NCBI GenBank assembly: GCA_029938505.1
Contig: JAOZUV010000048.1
Coordinates: 1-9,852 of the forward strand
Length of the DNA: 9,852 bases
Reading direction: 5' to 3'
From: Bacteroidales bacterium
GTDB lineage: Bacteria; Bacteroidota; Bacteroidia; Bacteroidales; GCA-2711565
Position numbers and translations under genes: made by a program. Within the stretch, counting starts at the first letter, position 1, and the number at the start of each line of letters is the position of its first letter. This document shows positions 104 through 5,288 of the stretch, one piece after another. Below the pieces are notes generated by a model. That model searched no databases and was not told the origin of the DNA. It saw nothing but the letters and a program-made list of their open reading frames with translations.

Positions 104-724
104 CTAGTGTGCTTCATGCCATCCGTTAATAATGCTTTTAAAATTGCTTAGTGCTGTTTTTCCCATGGTACAGAAATAAATATGTATCACCAAAAAAAGA
201 GAAATTACAAATCCAGTAATTAAATGAAGAAGATCAAATATATGTATGCTTTCTTCACCAAGTACATTGTTTTGCATAAAATCTGGAAAAATTAATACCC
301 AACCACTAATAACTACTATTGGTACTAAGAAATACATGAGTATTACATAGGTAATTTTTTGTAAGGGATTAAATTTTGATTTTTCTGTAATTGGAAAAGG
401 AGCTTCTTCACCTTTAAAAATACCCAAAGCATAATGTCTGAATTGCTTAAATAAATCCAAAATAAAACCTTTTAATACAATCCGATAATGTCTGCCATTA
501 GGTCTTATTAAATTCCCTATAATAAAGAAGAAATAGCTTAGAGATAATAGTACACCTGCAATATTGTGATAATTAACAGCTACATCAAAACGAATAATCA
601 GTGTATAATCTGGATTTGAATATTGCATACTTAATCCGGTAAAAATCAATGTTAAACATAATAGGGCATTCAAGCCGTGCCAAACCCGAATCCATTGTGG
701 ATATAAATATATTTTTTCTGACAT
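104..724 (-). CDS. Cytochrome b561-type membrane subunit (thiosulfate reductase cytochrome b-like)
   Basis: Inner-membrane di-heme cytochrome b of 206 residues that probably exchanges electrons between the quinone pool and the multiheme cytochrome encoded just upstream. Four hydrophobic segments are visible, at about 14-34, 52-72, 125-147 and 165-186. Histidines H16, H53, H167 and H181 sit inside or at the ends of the helices, the usual pattern for b-heme ligands in the b561/formate dehydrogenase gamma-like superfamily. The N-terminal YPQWIRVWHGLNA stretch is typical of this family. I start at the ATG at 724. An in-frame ATG at 760 would add 12 residues lying inside the upstream gene and preceding the conserved start. 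The upstream TAG ends at 726, one base before this ATG, so translational coupling is likely. Last gene of the cytochrome operon. Family assignment is firm; the physiological partner is inferred. Confidence 0.88.
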   Translation of the reverse strand: MSEKIYLYPQWIRVWHGLNALLCLTLIFTGLSMQYSNPDYTLIIRFDVAVNYHNIAGVLLSLSYFFFIIGNLIRPNGRHYRIVLKGFILDLFKQFRHYALGIFKGEEAPFPITEKSKFNPLQKITYVILMYFLVPIVVISGWVLIFPDFMQNNVLGEESIHIFDLLHLITGFVISLFLVIHIYFCTMGKTALSNFKSIINGWHEAH

Positions 725-725
725 A

Positions 726-1694
726 CTACCTGGATTTAAAAATGATACGTAAAATAACATGAATACTTATACCCCCCAGTGTCGTCAAAAAGATTAGAAT
801 ACTGGCAAGATTTAAAACATAGTTCCGGTTACCACCAATTAACTTAGGAGATTCCAAGTTCTCGTCTCTATCTTCGCTATACGATTTACCTTCATTTTGG
901 TATTTATAAAGGGTTTCGCTCAATATCGAATTTTGAGAGTGACACTCAGCACAACGCTGAACAGCCTTATCTTTAGTTTGTACATTATGGGCGACAAGAA
1001 TTTCATTATTGATTTCAGTATGACACTCTATACATCGCACACTCTGAAAATGCAAAACCTGATTAGGCAACCACTCGTGTTTCTCCAAAATATTGGGATT
1101 TTCCAAGGTAGTCAGTAATTGATATTTTGAAATATCAGCATGACAGCTTAAACAAATATTATTATCGTATTGAATGATTTCTTTTAGATGACCATTTGTT
1201 CGTGCACTGATTTTATAGGAGTGCGGATTGTGACACATCCAACAAGTAAATTCATCAGAATGTTTGGATGAATGCACACTATTGTGAAATTCTTCTTCAA
1301 TTTGATCAAAGCCATATTTGGCATAATCGTCATCGCCTCCGTGACAATCCATACAGCCCATTTTGGGTTCCATTCGTAATTCGCCTGAATGTGGAAATAT
1401 GGAATATTCAGATGAGTGACAATCGGTACAACTGAAATTTCGATGATTGGCCTGATAATATTCAGCCGAATCAACGATAAAATAAGGGTTCATACGTTCC
1501 CTGATCATTCTTTCGAACCAGTCATTATAGTAGTTATAGTATTTATGACCATGACATTTCAAACATTGCTGATTTTCTTTGGCATAATCAAAAGTAATAG
1601 TAGTTTGGTCTTGAGCGAGTAGTTCTGGGTAAAAAAATAATACTGAAATCAGAATAAAACCAAGTTTAGTAATCATGTTTAGTTTTGCTTTCAT
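726..1694 (-). CDS. Seven-heme c-type cytochrome with C-terminal membrane anchor
   Basis: Periplasmic multiheme electron carrier of 322 residues. A signal peptide (about 1-28, ending LLAQ) exports it. Seven CXXCH heme-binding motifs start at residues 44, 89, 114, 151, 181, 221 and 248, and many further histidines (for example near 84, 102, 137, 141, 158) could be second axial ligands. A hydrophobic segment at about 292-316 followed by basic FKSR looks like a C-terminal transmembrane anchor. This arrangement differs from NapC/NrfH cytochromes, which are anchored at the N-terminus and are shorter. It is coupled to the downstream cytochrome b gene (one-base gap), suggesting a two-subunit quinol:cytochrome c module with the b subunit in the membrane and the hemes in the periplasm. 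No CXXCK or other catalytic heme is seen, so I read it as a wire rather than a reductase. A second in-frame ATG seven codons in is a possible alternative start. The exact subfamily is not recognised. Confidence 0.88.
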   Translation of the reverse strand: MKAKLNMITKLGFILISVLFFYPELLAQDQTTITFDYAKENQQCLKCHGHKYYNYYNDWFERMIRERMNPYFIVDSAEYYQANHRNFSCTDCHSSEYSIFPHSGELRMEPKMGCMDCHGGDDDYAKYGFDQIEEEFHNSVHSSKHSDEFTCWMCHNPHSYKISARTNGHLKEIIQYDNNICLSCHADISKYQLLTTLENPNILEKHEWLPNQVLHFQSVRCIECHTEINNEILVAHNVQTKDKAVQRCAECHSQNSILSETLYKYQNEGKSYSEDRDENLESPKLIGGNRNYVLNLASILIFLTTLGGISIHVILRIIFKSR

Positions 1695-1709
1695 TCGTGT
1701 ATTTTTAAG

Positions 1710-1743
1710 AATTGGGTGTTCTTTAATTAAAGAACACCCAATT
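1710..1743. promoter_or_regulatory. Perfect 34-bp palindrome upstream of the seven-heme gene
   Basis: The half-site AATTGGGTGTTCTTTAA is followed directly by its exact reverse complement, with the centre between 1726 and 1727. Read on the minus strand it ends 15 bases before the ATG at 1694, inside the 155-base gap after the beta-barrel gene. As RNA it would form a strong hairpin in the leader of the seven-heme cistron. The minus-strand sequence after it is not a clean U-run (CTTAAAAATA), so it is a poor intrinsic terminator in that direction. It could be an mRNA processing or stability element, an attenuator, or a dimeric protein-binding site. The palindrome is certain; its function is not. 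Confidence 0.75.
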
Positions 1744-1849
1744 TAACAAATTGTTTATTATTTAAGAGTTCTATTAAGGTTTATAAATGTTTGCCTGCTT
1801 TTTATTGTTAGTGTTAATTTAGGCATTCATATTTTTTCTTTTTCAAGAA

Positions 1850-2719
1850 TTAAAAACTCCACAAACGTGTAATGGTAAAACCAAACATCATGTCACCATT
1901 TGTCCAATCGTTATCATTCATCATCATATTGTATTGATTACTCAATGCATCAGCAGTTCCCAGATAAACTTGGAAAACATGTGTACCTGTTGCAAATTCA
2001 ACTCCCAAAGCTAAATTTGCTTTTGGTTTGAATCCTAATTCAAGAAATTCTTGAGTACTTTTAATATGCAATGGGATGTCGTAATTAAAAATGAAAGAAC
2101 CTTGTGGGCTAAATTTTGCACGACCACTAAAAGAAAGACCATATTTATCATGTTCCAGTCCTGGTTCTACATTATTTATGTGTGAAAAACTAGGAGCAAA
2201 TTGTAAGGAAATAGCATCACTAAATTTACGGGCAAATATGATTTGTGCAAAGAATGAATATCTGTTTTGGCCTTCAAATGCTTCGCCAAAAACTTCTTTA
2301 TCTCGTCCGTCACTAGCTAAATTACCATAAAGAGTAATTGCTACAGGCATATTATTTGACCTGGTTTGATGGATAATATTCCATTTCACACGAACATCAT
2401 ACAATTTACGATCTTTCGTTGCTCCAATACCAATCATCAAATAGTCTCTGATGCTATAATTAAGACCCATTCGAATATTGGATGGTGCATAAAGACCAAA
2501 CATGTCATCTGTTCCATTTTGAATAGTTCCAAATCGGTGCTCAATGACCATCTCTAAAGTTCCTTTATCTGGAACAAGAATGGTTTGGTTATCAATGATT
2601 ACACCACTTTCAAAAGTACCACTAACGGGCCTTTCTTTTGCTTTTGGCTCTGCATCCTGTGCCATTAATACACCAACACTAAGAAGCAGCCCTAATAGAA
2701 GTAAAGTTATTTTTTTCAT
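1850..2719 (-). CDS. DUF5777-type outer-membrane beta-barrel protein
   Basis: Predicted outer-membrane barrel of 289 residues. The first 21 residues form a signal peptide (MKKITLLLLG..., cleavage after LMAQ is plausible). The mature part is rich in alternating polar/hydrophobic stretches separated by Gly/Asn/Asp turns and ends in phenylalanine (ITRLWSF), the usual C-terminal signature of outer-membrane barrels. Features I associate with the DUF5777 family are the early EHRFGTI stretch, the GLYAPSNIRMGLNYSI segment and the DYLMIGIGATKDRK segment. As I recall, members are often encoded beside mono-heme cytochrome lipoproteins in Bacteroidota, as here: the mono-heme gene ends 12 bases upstream. 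The function is not established. In this operon a barrel that houses or anchors cytochromes at the outer membrane, or a small-molecule porin, are both possible. The family call is strong; the role is inferred. Confidence 0.82.
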   Translation of the reverse strand: MKKITLLLLGLLLSVGVLMAQDAEPKAKERPVSGTFESGVIIDNQTILVPDKGTLEMVIEHRFGTIQNGTDDMFGLYAPSNIRMGLNYSIRDYLMIGIGATKDRKLYDVRVKWNIIHQTRSNNMPVAITLYGNLASDGRDKEVFGEAFEGQNRYSFFAQIIFARKFSDAISLQFAPSFSHINNVEPGLEHDKYGLSFSGRAKFSPQGSFIFNYDIPLHIKSTQEFLELGFKPKANLALGVEFATGTHVFQVYLGTADALSNQYNMMMNDNDWTNGDMMFGFTITRLWSF

Positions 2720-2731
2720 AAGTTCCGTTTT

Positions 2732-3133
2732 TTAATTATTTAATGCTCCTTCTTGAATCCACAGTAAAATTTTTGCAGCCTGTGCTGACGAATAGAATTT
2801 TTGTGGATGAGTGCTTGTAGATACTAGAATATAATCATATAACTTACTGGCTTCAGGATCAGTTAAATTAACTAGATTCATAGACATAATGCTATTGTAA
2901 GCGTTTACAGCCGTTAAGTCTGGTGCTGTTTTTCCTGGATAATGACAAGAAGTACAATAATCACCATTCGTAAAAACTGGAATTATTTTAGAAGCAAAAC
3001 TAATCGGATTATCTGGATCAGGAGTTGGGGGATCTATGTCTGCGTCAGGGTATTGAACAAATGTATATTCACATCCAGCCAAAAATAAGACCCCAAAGAA
3101 AAGCATTATAAAATATAGTCTTGTGTTTTTCAT
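2732..3133 (-). CDS. Mono-heme c-type cytochrome lipoprotein
   Basis: Small electron carrier of 133 residues, lipid-anchored. The leader ends in a clear lipobox (FLAG followed by C21). A Pro/Asp-rich linker covers about 26-43. One heme site, CTSCH, is at 60-64. The rest resembles the small cytochrome c domains of Bacteroidota lipoproteins, with a segment of the type DPEASKLYDYI and the terminal WIQEGA motif. In many relatives a Met-Pro-Pro motif before the last helix supplies the sixth heme ligand. Here that place reads STHPQKF, so H109 may replace methionine; M83 and M85 are other candidates. It sits between the terminator-like hairpin and the barrel gene and probably passes electrons between the periplasmic seven-heme protein and outer-membrane components. 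Inner- versus outer-membrane anchoring cannot be settled from sequence alone. Confidence 0.85.
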   Translation of the reverse strand: MKNTRLYFIMLFFGVLFLAGCEYTFVQYPDADIDPPTPDPDNPISFASKIIPVFTNGDYCTSCHYPGKTAPDLTAVNAYNSIMSMNLVNLTDPEASKLYDYILVSTSTHPQKFYSSAQAAKILLWIQEGALNN

Positions 3134-3162
3134 TTTTTGTAAGTTTAAGTTTAAAATTTAGC

Positions 3163-3196
3163 AAAAAAAAGGCTCCTTAAAATTGAAGCCTTTTTT
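3163..3196 (-). terminator. Intrinsic terminator-like hairpin between two cytochrome genes
   Basis: The arms AAAAAAGGCT (3165-3174) and AGCCTTTTTT (3187-3196) form a 10-bp stem around a 12-base loop. On the minus strand the GGCT/AGCC stem is followed by a run of eight T's, as in a rho-independent terminator, 20-50 bases after the stop of the six-heme gene. It could end most transcripts after the first gene, so that the outer cytochrome is made in excess over the downstream components. The A/T arms make it usable in both directions. Confidence 0.7.
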
Positions 3197-3216
3197 ATCT
3201 AAGTTCTAATGTGAAA

Positions 3217-4293
3217 TTAAGGAGTAACTTCAGCTATAGTATTTGTTAATAGTGTCTTGATGTACAAATAATTATGTGCACCATGGCTACCATCATAATG
3301 AGCTAAGTTTAAATTAATAATTGCAGCTGCATGAGTAGCAGACATTGTTTGTGGAATTGCATGGCTAGTTGCATCAAGAACTCCAGCATCCATTAACAAT
3401 GCTTTTAGTTGTGCTTCCAAACCATCAATTTCGGTTGCAGTTGTAGCCATTTTTGCATTTAATGCTCCTGAATCAGGATGACATGCAACACAACCTGCAC
3501 TATTCACAGAAGTGCTACCATAAGAAGTTTTAGTAATCCCCATTGTATGACCACCCATTGCAACACCATCAGCTTCTGCCATATGGCAATCCACACAAGT
3601 ATTTTCAATTTGGGTTCCATGAGCAGAATTTAAGTATCCTGTTCCAAACTCAAAACCTCCAGTACCAGCCATAACAGCGGCTTGTGCACCATAATGAGCT
3701 CCCCAATATTTATGTGGAATAAAAACATCAGATCCACCTAAAACAGGCATTGGTTCTGGAAGTCTATTTTGGTGACAATTGGCACATAAATTTCCTTTAC
3801 CTAAATCAACCTGAGCACCGTTAATATGAAGCGTAACAGCAGAAGTTGTTGTAAGAGCTAAATCAGAAGAAGTGTAGGTGTCATGTATATTATGACAAGT
3901 ATAACAGTTAATTGGGTTAGGATTGCTAATTATAGCTCCTTCCGCTAAAGGATCATAAGAGCCTGAAAGGTTTCCTAAGAATCCCTGACTTGTGTGACAA
4001 ATAGCACAATCTTCATCATTTCTGTTGAAATTGCCACCAGTAGCATGTGTACTTGCTTCCCACTGATTAATTTGGGAAAACATTCCTTGAGATTCACCAC
4101 CATCGTGGCATGCTATACATCCGGCTGTACCGTCTGTACCGTTAATTCCGTCTTCACCAGCTACACCTGCTGCTCCTGTTGCTCCTTGAGCACCTGTTGC
4201 TCCCGCTGGCCCTTCTTTTGTACAGCTTGACATCAGGATCATGCCCGATACGAAAGCTATCGATAAAAATGTTAAAAATGTAAATTTTTTCAT
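3217..4293 (-). CDS. Six-heme c-type cytochrome lipoprotein with collagen-like stalk
   Basis: Probably a membrane-anchored, possibly surface-exposed, electron-transfer protein of 358 residues. The leader ends LMSS-C24, a lipobox. Residues 28-57 are ten uninterrupted Gly-X-Y triplets (GPAGATGAQ...), a collagen-like spacer, and the first heme motif follows at once. Six CXXCH motifs begin at residues 59, 96, 130, 170, 233 and 268. Segments such as WGAHYGAQAAVMAGTGGFEF, the NSAH before heme 5 and the GGHT after it are familiar from large multiheme cytochromes of environmental bacteria, as is the C-terminal SHGAHNYLYIKTLL, which recalls the end of NrfA-like proteins. There is no CXXCK heme and the heme count and order do not fit NrfA, so I do not call it nitrite reductase. 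First gene of the minus-strand cluster, facing the Crp/Fnr gene across a shared upstream region. Which compound it reduces or oxidises is unknown. Confidence 0.88.
   Translation of the reverse strand: MKKFTFLTFLSIAFVSGMILMSSCTKEGPAGATGAQGATGAAGVAGEDGINGTDGTAGCIACHDGGESQGMFSQINQWEASTHATGGNFNRNDEDCAICHTSQGFLGNLSGSYDPLAEGAIISNPNPINCYTCHNIHDTYTSSDLALTTTSAVTLHINGAQVDLGKGNLCANCHQNRLPEPMPVLGGSDVFIPHKYWGAHYGAQAAVMAGTGGFEFGTGYLNSAHGTQIENTCVDCHMAEADGVAMGGHTMGITKTSYGSTSVNSAGCVACHPDSGALNAKMATTATEIDGLEAQLKALLMDAGVLDATSHAIPQTMSATHAAAIINLNLAHYDGSHGAHNYLYIKTLLTNTIAEVTP
4123..4212 (-). repeat. Collagen-like Gly-X-Y triplet coding repeat
   Basis: Ten consecutive GXY triplets (residues 28-57 of the six-heme lipoprotein), four residues after the lipidated cysteine. 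Ala/Thr fill most X and Y positions early on, then acidic and Asn residues. Such stretches can trimerise or act as a stiff spacer that holds the heme domain away from the membrane. The repeat is visible directly; trimer formation is inference. Confidence 0.85.
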
Positions 4294-4578: not shown

Positions 4579-4586
4579 TATTTTTG
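4579..4586 (+). promoter_or_regulatory. Possible -7 element (TATTTTTG) of the Crp/Fnr gene
   Basis: It fits the Bacteroidota -7 consensus TAnnTTTG exactly. The last base lies only six bases before the ATG at 4593, so a transcript starting at the usual distance would have almost no leader. It also overlaps an in-frame TTG at 4584, which argues against that TTG being the start codon. No convincing -33 box is seen, and the A/T-rich setting makes chance matches likely. Confidence 0.3.
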
Positions 4587-4592
4587 ACTTTT

Positions 4593-5288
4593 ATGGCACA
4601 ATTTATTAACACCACATATTGCACAAATTGCAACAAACAAGCAAGTATGTTTAAGCTCCTCACACCTGAGGAAATGACATATCTTAATGAGCACAGACAT
4701 GAAGTTCGTTTTAATCCTGGCGAGACTATTTTTAAAGAAAGAGGTGCCTTAACCCATATCGGATGTATAACCTCAGGCTTGGTTAAGGTTTATACCGAAG
4801 GAATTAACAAACGAAATTTAGTATTTTACATTTTAAAGTCTGGTTCTCTTATAGGTGGGCCTGGTTTTATGGATGATAATAGATTGCATTATTCAGCATC
4901 TGCATTAACATATGTTACGGCTTGCTTTATCGAAGTTGACGCTTTTATTAAAGTTATCAGTACTAATCATCAGTTTACCACTGAAATGTTTAAAATGATA
5001 AACCGGAAGTCGAGTATTTATATGGATAAACTCGTATCTCTTACTCAGAAACAAATGCCAGGCAGAATAGCAGATACTCTTCTGTATTTATCGGAAGAAA
5101 TTTATAATTCTCAAGAATTCACTGTTGATGTTTCCCGTCAGGATATTGCTGACTTATCTGCCATGTCAAAAGAAAGTGCTATTCGTATTATAAAGGAGTT
5201 TAAAGATGCCGGCTATGTCAGTTGTGAAAACAATGATATTGTTATTAAAGACCTAAAAGCTCTGAAAAAAGTAAGTCTGACAGGATAA
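4593..5288 (+). CDS. Crp/Fnr-family transcriptional regulator with N-terminal CXXC
   Basis: DNA-binding regulator of 231 residues. A cNMP-binding-like beta-roll covers about 20-115, a long dimer helix follows (about 127-155), and a winged helix-turn-helix lies at about 180-208, with SRQDIADLSAMSKESAIRII as the recognition region. The cAMP pocket signature of CRP (GE...RS/TA) is absent; the matching place reads GGPGFMDDNRLHYSAS, so cAMP is an unlikely ligand. Cysteines at 10, 13, 58 and 111 recall the iron-sulfur cysteines of FNR, though the spacing differs; redox, O2, NO or heme sensing are all open. I start at the ATG at 4593 rather than the TTG at 4584, which falls inside a possible promoter element. 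A later ATG (4647) would remove the CXXC. Divergent from the cytochrome cluster, it probably regulates that cluster and itself. Confidence 0.9.
   Translation: MAQFINTTYCTNCNKQASMFKLLTPEEMTYLNEHRHEVRFNPGETIFKERGALTHIGCITSGLVKVYTEGINKRNLVFYILKSGSLIGGPGFMDDNRLHYSASALTYVTACFIEVDAFIKVISTNHQFTTEMFKMINRKSSIYMDKLVSLTQKQMPGRIADTLLYLSEEIYNSQEFTVDVSRQDIADLSAMSKESAIRIIKEFKDAGYVSCENNDIVIKDLKALKKVSLTG

What the first reader, a model, noticed from the sequence alone, without database searches (positions are those of the whole stretch)
104..4293. Five-gene set resembling an inner-membrane-to-surface electron conduit
Seen: a cytochrome b561-type membrane protein, a C-terminally anchored seven-heme cytochrome, an outer-membrane barrel (DUF5777-like), a mono-heme lipoprotein and a six-heme lipoprotein on a collagen-like stalk, all co-directional. 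Known: porin-cytochrome conduits such as MtrCAB combine a quinol oxidase, periplasmic hemes, a barrel and an outer cytochrome. Inference: this cluster could be a Bacteroidota version built from unrelated parts, with 14 c-hemes and no recognisable terminal reductase. The barrel is only 289 residues, so it may be too small to enclose a cytochrome, which is the main weakness.
Basis: partly seen in the sequence, partly recalled or inferred. Interest (0 to 1): 0.75.

Follow-up and report, generated by a model that had tools for sequence, protein, structure and literature searches.

The report
Bacteroidota heme pathway across cell envelope
This is a conserved set of neighbouring genes in uncultured Bacteroidota that most likely carries respiratory electrons from the inner membrane to heme proteins at the outer membrane, using an outer-membrane barrel too narrow to work like the known electron conduits.

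Summary
In detail: five co-directional genes with 6+1+7 CXXCH motifs. They are a conserved unit. In 80 genome loci anchored on the seven-heme protein, b561 follows directly in 77 of 78 testable, the DUF5777 barrel lies within 3 kb upstream in 63 of 65, and a mono-heme protein precedes the barrel in 61 of 63. The window's contig ends 103 nt after b561. In relatives with at least 2 kb beyond b561, another electron-transfer gene follows on the same strand within 5 kb in 58 of 66: Fe-S/NrfD, 19-heme CbcL-like, NapC-like or c554-like. The six-heme protein belongs to the NrfA/OcwA superfamily. The barrel is predicted to have 12 strands, too narrow for an MtrA-style insert, and belongs to a redox-linked DUF5777 clade apart from the common, mostly YceI-linked kind. 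Best reading: a menaquinol-linked pathway to outer-membrane or surface cytochromes. The electron steps, surface position and direction are inferred. A cluster with similar, not identical, gene counts was noted in an anode-enriched Bacteroidetes genome (PMC8258643). New variant of a known kind.

The parts
3217..4293 (-). Six-heme lipoprotein, NrfA/OcwA superfamily, with short collagen-like stretch after the lipobox Cys24
   Evidence: 6 CXXCH; PF22113 E 3e-10; PF01391 below cut-off; profile A2 to 6i5b E 9e-13 and NrfA 1oah E 2e-6; 6 non-motif His invariant in 33 of 33
2732..3133 (-). Mono-heme c-type lipoprotein (Cys21 lipobox), constant partner of DUF5777
   Evidence: C21 and C60/C63/H64 invariant in 20 aligned rows; directly before the barrel in 61 of 63; no Pfam match at E 0.05
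1850..2719 (-). DUF5777 outer-membrane beta-barrel, 12 predicted strands, redox-linked clade
   Evidence: PF19089 E 6e-77; AlphaFold2, pLDDT 89, 12 strands; tree
726..1694 (-). Seven-heme c-type cytochrome with signal peptide (by eye and hydropathy) and one C-terminal membrane helix; His312 and Arg316 in or at the end of it are 97% conserved
   Evidence: 7 CXXCH; helix 296-314; 7 non-motif His outside the helix invariant in 79 rows; an eighth, H145, 90%
104..724 (-). Cytochrome b561-type membrane subunit, 206 aa, four invariant His placed as in the family (two b hemes expected)
   Evidence: PF01292 E 3e-25; H28, H65, H179, H193 invariant in 77 rows; numbers for the 218-aa ORF from 760; start at 724
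4584..5288 (+). Divergent Crp/Fnr-family regulator, possibly controlling the cluster
   Evidence: PF13545, PF00027; a crp gene within 8 kb in 52 of 80 loci, many loci being short

Best explanation
The cluster encodes a menaquinol-linked electron pathway from the inner membrane to cytochromes anchored at the outer membrane, most likely for passing electrons to an extracellular acceptor. Steps: (1) the b561 protein (two b hemes) takes electrons from menaquinol and passes them to the seven-heme protein, fixed beside it by its C-terminal helix, as CbcBA and CbcL are held to do in Geobacter (inferred from architecture). (2) Soluble carriers (class I or c554-like cytochromes in relatives; none in the window) may bridge the periplasm (inferred). 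(3) At the outer membrane the mono-heme lipoprotein works together with the 12-strand DUF5777 barrel; the tight pairing is shown, the role in crossing the membrane is inferred. (4) The six-heme NrfA/OcwA-type lipoprotein is the terminal electron outlet (inferred). In relatives, extra quinol oxidoreductases of the CbcL-like, NapC-like or Fe-S/NrfD kind sit beside the same outer-membrane part.
For: Conserved order: b561 next in 77 of 78, DUF5777 in 63 of 65, mono-heme in 61 of 63 testable loci. Interchangeable quinol-side modules in the same clusters. Invariant non-motif His equal in number to the hemes in the seven-heme (7, plus H145 at 90%) and six-heme (6) proteins, as bis-His wiring would need. 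The cluster-type DUF5777 is split from 40 generic ones at SH-aLRT 100. In 14 regions from genomes lacking the seven-heme gene the same clade sits near Fe-S plus NrfD in 10 and class I cytochrome c in 13; EB_dh-type lipoproteins adjoin in the three scanned, and in L207 a CXXCH protein with a type IX secretion tail, i.e. an exported partner. The six-heme protein's best solved match is OcwA, a cell-surface terminal reductase. A full NrfA lies elsewhere in 12 of 16 related genomes at E below 1e-170. MtrB/PioB gave weak partial matches in 3 of 16, 1 over the cut-off at 26.7 bits. The four class genomes with the seven-heme gene also have the six-heme gene, in G141 as pieces at contig ends. PMC8258643 (passages): anode-enriched Bacteroidetes genome with a similar cluster.
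Against: No surface localisation was shown: by eye neither lipoprotein has a known Bacteroidota surface-export signal (motif recalled). A 12-strand barrel cannot enclose a multiheme protein, so how electrons cross the outer membrane is unexplained. The six-heme gene is less constant (39 of 52) than the rest, and occurs in G281 without the seven-heme gene. DUF5777 is present in 259 of 296 class genomes, the seven-heme gene strongly in 4. The NrfA kinship leaves room for a soluble-substrate reductase. Eight of 66 loci show no further electron-transfer gene downstream on the same strand. No expression or physiology is available.
Confidence: 0.58

Rival explanations
1. Soluble-substrate respiration or detoxification: the six-heme NrfA-like lipoprotein is a reductase for a small molecule (nitrite, hydroxylamine or similar) on the outer membrane; the 12-strand barrel is a diffusion pore that lets the substrate in, and b561/seven-heme supplies electrons.
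For: NrfA/OcwA superfamily membership; OcwA itself reduces nitrite slowly and turns over hydroxylamine (PMC6703420, passages); among the barrel's solved neighbours shown, those best covered are porins such as NanC and KdgM.
Against: No CXXCK motif in the window protein; six invariant non-motif His for six hemes leaves no obvious open site; a dedicated NrfA exists elsewhere in 12 of 16 related genomes; the outer part recurs with other lipoproteins of EB_dh type.
Confidence: 0.2
2. Same machinery run inwards: electrons from outside (reduced minerals, a partner cell, a cathode) enter through the outer cytochromes and reduce menaquinone.
For: CbcBA is predicted to run in reverse in syntrophic Seep-SRB2 (PMC10553843, passages). 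Nothing in the sequence sets the direction.
Against: The named relatives are Bacteroidota MAGs, a group mostly of organotrophs (recalled); no carbon-fixation or syntrophy genes were examined.
Confidence: 0.12
3. DUF5777 plus mono-heme lipoprotein is a general outer-membrane maintenance or redox-sensing unit, and the cytochromes beside it serve an ordinary periplasmic respiratory chain.
For: DUF5777 in 259 of 296 class genomes, commonly with a YceI-like gene (29 of 37 loci) and a mono-heme protein (33 of 37).
Against: The cluster-type DUF5777 are a separate clade, and generic paralogues co-exist in some of the same genomes.
Confidence: 0.1

Closest known systems
Uncharacterised 'Bacteroidetes_1' anode-biofilm cluster (Biofilm 2021, PMC8258643)
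   Same: Seven genes: one beta-barrel and six cytochromes, five with signal peptides, three with membrane helices (passages). The L001/L005-type cluster also has seven genes, one barrel and six cytochromes; by eye five with signal peptides and three with membrane helices.
   Different: The paper calls all six cytochromes multiheme; here only four of the six are (the others are mono-heme and b-type). Sequences were not compared (supplements not readable here), so identity is possible, not shown.
Geobacter CbcBA, CbcL and ImcH quinone oxidoreductases
   Same: Multiheme c plus b-type inner-membrane design; in relatives a CbcL-like fusion (19 c hemes plus b561 domain) and a NapC/NirT-type protein sit in the same cluster.
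   Different: CbcL has nine c hemes (PMC9129911); no CbcA/CbcB sequence was in reach for a homology test; in Geobacter they are separate loci (recalled).
OcwA of Thermincola potens (6I5B) and NrfA
   Same: Profile match over the C-terminal heme pair and helical part (E 9e-13 and 2e-6).
   Different: Six hemes instead of nine or five; no CXXCK (unlike NrfA); lipoprotein with collagen-like stretch in a Gram-negative, whereas OcwA is from a Gram-positive bacterium.
MtrCAB / Pcc porin-cytochrome conduits
   Same: General idea: quinol oxidase, periplasmic hemes, barrel, outer cytochrome.
   Different: Barrel is DUF5777 with 12 predicted strands, not MtrB/PioB; the seven-heme protein has its own membrane anchor rather than sitting in the barrel.
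Generic DUF5777 / mono-heme unit of Bacteroidota, mostly YceI-linked
   Same: Same barrel family and a mono-heme partner (33 of 37 loci).
   Different: Separate clade; no seven-heme gene seen in the 1.5-kb flanks held.

Membership tests
DUF5777 (PF19089) | Match over the curated cut-off across the whole domain | tested here: met
   258.7 bits vs 23.1, profile 1-247 of 247
MtrCAB-type porin-cytochrome complex | Large MtrB/PioB-type barrel that can enclose a multiheme cytochrome | tested here: not met
   One search lists only PF19089 for the barrel, no PF11854; 12 predicted strands; no MtrB among the 50 Foldseek rows shown
MtrCAB-type porin-cytochrome complex | Soluble periplasmic multiheme protein inserted in the barrel | tested here: not met
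   Within the window the only candidate, the seven-heme protein, has a C-terminal membrane helix with conserved residues in it; the DNA beyond the contig end was not seen
MtrCAB-type porin-cytochrome complex | Surface-exposed multiheme lipoprotein | not testable with these tools
   Lipobox Cys conserved; exposure needs experiment
CbcBA quinone oxidoreductase | Adjacent genes for multiheme c-type (seven hemes, recalled) and diheme b-type subunits | tested here: met
   Seven-heme protein with b561 directly downstream in 77 of 78 loci; four invariant His
CbcBA quinone oxidoreductase | Sequence homology to Geobacter CbcA/CbcB | not tested
   No Geobacter sequence was fetched; the weak PDB match 28pb_A 'Cytochrome c' (E 1.6e-7 by single sequence; 9e-5 by profile) is of unknown title
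NrfA/OcwA superfamily | C-terminal heme motifs followed by helical bundle | tested here: met
   Profile A2 to 6i5b_A E 9.2e-13 and 1oah_A E 2.2e-6; the G308 copy scores 26.3 bits over the PF02335 cut-off of 24.1, while the window's own copy scores 17.2, below it
NrfA nitrite reductase (sub-family) | CXXCK catalytic heme, five hemes | tested here: not met
   Six CXXCH, no CXXCK in the window protein
OcwA-like terminal reductase (sub-family) | Open-coordination heme(s) with a His-His motif above | tested here: inconclusive
   A column next to invariant H200 is His in 88% of 33 rows but Tyr in the window; six invariant non-motif His for six hemes

The most novel reading that the evidence does not exclude
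The DUF5777 barrel with its mono-heme lipoprotein is a minimal outer-membrane electron crossing: a 12-strand barrel and a single heme, instead of a large barrel wrapping a multiheme wire. It would be a Bacteroidota-wide unit onto which different quinol oxidoreductases (CbcBA-, CbcL-, NapC- and NrfD-like) and different outer heme proteins (six-heme, EB_dh, type IX-secreted) are plugged. One heme half-way is enough for tunnelling in principle; this is inference.
Probability: 0.18. Interest if true: 0.88.

Novelty: new variant of a known kind. Interest (0 to 1): 0.62.

Why it matters
Surveys look for known conduit porins (MtrB, OmbB, Ext). In one bioanode survey two Bacteroidetes were among the ten most abundant biofilm organisms, yet the groups named with such porins in the passages I saw did not include them (PMC7399161). 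A conserved cluster with a different, small barrel could explain missed extracellular respiration in Bacteroidota and give a metagenome marker (seven-heme/b561 plus cluster-type DUF5777). It also poses a clean physical question: how electrons cross an outer membrane beside a barrel too narrow to hold a heme wire.

Tried and rejected
Structure of the seven-heme protein: AlphaFold2 gave mean pLDDT 44, not used beyond noting the C-terminal helix. A barrel-cytochrome complex could not be predicted (single chains only). Bacteroidota-type promoter pattern: 0 matches, 1.1 expected. Sigma-70 and terminator scans did not exceed the shuffles; not used. Plasmid carriage of the seven-heme protein: no match. 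Defence-system origin: no PADLOC match for the three proteins tested. Collagen-like stretch as proof of exposure: rejected, because the match is below Pfam's cut-off. The weak MtrB/PioB-like places L217 and L218 were not looked at further. Literature: 'DUF5777' gave 0 papers in the held library; collagen-like plus multiheme cytochrome plus Bacteroidetes gave 0; Prolixibacteraceae plus extracellular electron transfer plus multiheme plus gene cluster gave 0. Other searches were seen as listings with starts of abstracts; passages were read in PMC10553843, PMC7399161, PMC8258643, PMC6295460, PMC12307469, PMC6703420, PMC9129911, PMC12977616 and PMC6148476, no paper in full. Joshi et al. 2021 (CbcBA) itself was not seen.

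First DUF5777 tree had mislabelled rows: DUF5777 copies up to 10 kb away had been counted as cluster-linked. Labels were redone by distance (0-4.5 kb upstream of the seven-heme gene) and one duplicate was dropped. There, two displaced copies (L012, L032) were called generic but fell inside the cluster-linked clade; I counted them as cluster-linked. Only DUF5777 of 250-345 aa, and 250-370 aa for the added rows, were used. Trees are quick searches (SH-aLRT only, long branches flagged). The 40 generic rows are the 30 top-scoring loci, six from the ten genomes and four from near the clusters, so low-scoring DUF5777 are under-sampled. One search used length-filtered rows: 77 b561, 79 seven-heme, 33 six-heme, 64 DUF5777.

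Mended after checking: the likeness to the PMC8258643 cluster was first stated as equal counts; the paper's word 'multiheme' for all six does not fit, so the claim is now 'similar'. The 'YceI-linked' label of the generic barrels was counted (29 of 37).
Full report
What is in the window. The five genes are real and co-directional on the minus strand. Heme motifs count 6, 1, 0, 7 and 0 in transcription order, 14 in all. Pfam assigns the barrel to DUF5777 at 258.7 bits and the last gene to the b561 family. The b561 start should be moved to base 724 (206 aa), close to the length seen in relatives. The window's contig stops 103 nt after that gene, so what lies downstream is unknown here. Upstream and divergent lies a Crp/Fnr-family regulator, then gcpE, a YegS-like lipid kinase, trkH and the C-terminal end of a trkA-like gene. 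Crp, gcpE and the kinase flank the cluster in L001 too, and with trkH in L002.

Is it a unit? A search of one genome per species found 332 relatives of the seven-heme protein; the 80 best were fetched. Counting only loci with enough DNA to test, the b561 gene follows directly in 77 of 78. DUF5777 lies within 3 kb upstream in 63 of 65. A mono-heme protein (by BLAST, or under 180 aa with a heme motif) lies directly before the barrel in 61 of 63, and the six-heme lipoprotein within 6 kb in 39 of 52. With broader seeds the six-heme gene is within 8 kb in 52 of all 80. L017 lacks the b561 gene and has other genes instead; in L012 and L032 the barrel lies elsewhere in the locus. So four genes form a tight unit and the six-heme gene is a frequent but looser member. 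In an even draw of 296 genomes of the class (90% completeness was asked for; the tool did not report it back) the seven-heme gene was found strongly in 4, plus one weak hit of 20.9 bits: the system is patchy. In the family of L001's genome it is in 4 of 6. In the same 296 the six-heme profile matched over its length in 4 genomes (three of them with the seven-heme gene, and G281 without) and in pieces at contig ends in the fourth (G141); most of the other 30 genomes at E <= 1e-3 matched weakly, mainly in the N-terminal stretch, with stronger part matches in G017.

What the contig end hides. In 66 loci with at least 2 kb beyond b561, another electron-transfer gene follows on the same strand within 5 kb in 58. 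The next gene is a Fe-S protein in 28, the 19-heme protein in 16, the NapC-type in 9 (same strand), the four-heme in 2 and class I in 1. The eight without are L021, L022, L060, L066, L067, L072, L074 and L076. Within 8 kb on either strand 78 of 80 loci hold at least one such gene: a 19-heme protein with a C-terminal b561 domain (23), a c554-like four-heme protein (19), a NapC/NirT-type six-heme protein (36), NrfD (29) or a class I mono-heme cytochrome (43; in many it lies between barrel and seven-heme gene). Families were assigned on examples. The four nearest relatives (L001, L002, L003, L138) have the 19-heme or the four-heme gene right after b561. I therefore expect one of these in the source organism.

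The inner-membrane side. The b561 protein has four invariant His in 77 rows, enough for two b hemes. The seven-heme protein has seven fully invariant non-motif His outside the membrane helix in 79 rows, one per heme, an eighth (H145) at 90%, plus His312 and Arg316 in or at the helix at 97%. This is what an all bis-His wire bound to a b-type quinol oxidase needs; that it oxidises menaquinol is inferred from the family. Geobacter uses such inner-membrane c/b-type complexes (CbcL: nine c hemes and two b hemes, PMC9129911, passages; [quoted passage not shown] Sequence homology to CbcA or CbcB was not tested.

The six-heme protein. A profile of 18 relatives matches OcwA (6i5b, E 9.2e-13) and NrfA (1oah, E 2.2e-6) over the last two heme motifs and the C-terminal helices. 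OcwA is a cell-surface terminal reductase, related to NrfA and not to MtrC (PMC6703420, passages; the paper contains the code 6I5B once). By single sequence the window protein gives no PDB match better than E 0.03, so the link rests on the profile. Pfam's MtrC-type match (PF22113, E 3e-10) probably reflects shared heme motifs, as other multiheme proteins here match it too. The protein has no CXXCK. Six non-motif His are invariant in 33 of 33 rows, one per heme, so a pure wire is plausible and an open site is not evident. A full NrfA lies elsewhere (another contig, or 29 kb away in G008) in 12 of 16 related genomes at E below 1e-170; G005 has only a broken piece, G281 a weak hit, G307 and G233 none.

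The barrel. AlphaFold2 on 40 aligned relatives gives pLDDT 89 and twelve strands. Foldseek finds general porins and transporters (OmpG, FapF, COG4313 first), with the best target coverage among the rows shown for the porins KdgM and NanC (TM 0.74 and 0.68 by target), and no MtrB among the 50 rows shown. DUF5777 is not specific to this pathway: 259 of 296 class genomes have it. In 37 loci of the generic kind a YceI-like gene was seen in 29 and a mono-heme partner in 33, despite only 1.5 kb of flank. But the barrels of the present clusters are a lineage of their own. In a tree of 135 rows, 69 cluster-linked barrels and 26 from genomes without the seven-heme gene stand on one side of a branch with SH-aLRT 100, and all 40 generic barrels on the other, including paralogues from some of the same genomes. 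Limits: quick tree, no bootstrap, generic set biased to high scorers.

What the seven-heme-less relatives add. At E <= 1e-70, 27 of 296 genomes carry this barrel type; 4 of them have the seven-heme gene. In 14 regions from 14 of the other 23 genomes, Fe-S plus NrfD genes sit near the mono-heme/barrel pair in 10 and a class I cytochrome c in 13. The four without both Fe-S and NrfD are L203, L206 (cut by a contig end), L209 and L213 (NrfD-like alone). EB_dh-type lipoproteins adjoin in L200, L201 and L210, the three scanned, and in L207 a CXXCH protein with a type IX secretion tail, which marks a protein exported through the outer membrane. So the outer unit is a constant plug for variable quinol oxidoreductases and variable outer heme proteins. 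This is the best evidence that it handles electrons at the outer membrane, with at least one partner on the outer side.

How it most likely works. Menaquinol gives electrons to b561 and the seven-heme protein; soluble cytochromes (found in relatives) may carry them over the periplasm; the mono-heme lipoprotein and the barrel pass or position them at the outer membrane; the six-heme protein hands them to the acceptor. Shown: gene linkage, families, conserved possible ligands, predicted barrel size, clade. Inferred: every electron-transfer step, the surface position, the direction. The crossing itself is unexplained.

Prior print. An anode-enriched Bacteroidetes genome had a cluster of seven genes, one beta-barrel and six cytochromes, five with signal peptides and three with membrane helices, called 'previously uncharacterized' (PMC8258643, passages). 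The L001/L005-type cluster also has seven genes with one barrel and six cytochromes (six-heme, mono-heme, seven-heme, b561, 19-heme, four-heme). However, the paper calls all six multiheme and here four are, so it may or may not be the same system; sequences were not compared. No paper in the held library contains 'DUF5777'.

Verdict. A real, conserved, uncharacterised electron-transfer cluster; a new variant of a known kind. The five-gene view is a truncated one.

Noticed in passing
L081-L086, L091, L104-L133 (generic DUF5777 loci): DUF5777 across the class commonly sits with a YceI-like gene (29 of 37 loci) and a mono-heme protein (33 of 37), often also an OB-fold protein of about 144 aa (one scanned, PF12869); function of this very common set is unknown to me.
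   Followed up: partly
L207:7472-8299; L204:5961-6818; L205:4351-5163; L211:6637-7479: Similar proteins with a heme-like Cys motif lie by the cluster-type DUF5777; the one scanned (L207) has a type IX secretion tail (PF18962). The others were only read by eye.
   Followed up: partly
L211:7703-8725: A second collagen-like heme lipoprotein (two class I heme stretches) in a DUF5777/NrfD cluster: such heme lipoproteins recur.
   Followed up: no
window 1850-2719 (H61, H180, H247): Three His are nearly invariant in the cluster-linked DUF5777 and by eye also present in the generic kind; possible metal or heme site or lumen feature.
   Followed up: no
window 726-1694 (His312, Arg316): His and Arg in or at the C-terminal membrane helix of the seven-heme protein are 97% conserved, possibly at the quinone or b-heme site.
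   Followed up: no
L001:11627-14434: CbcL-like fusion with 19 CXXCH and a b561 domain in one 935-aa protein, next to the seven-heme/b561 pair.
   Followed up: partly
window 4584-5288: Crp/Fnr-family regulator with a Cys pair near its N-terminus (CTNCNKQ); related Crp genes flank many relatives, some loci with two or three copies.
   Followed up: no
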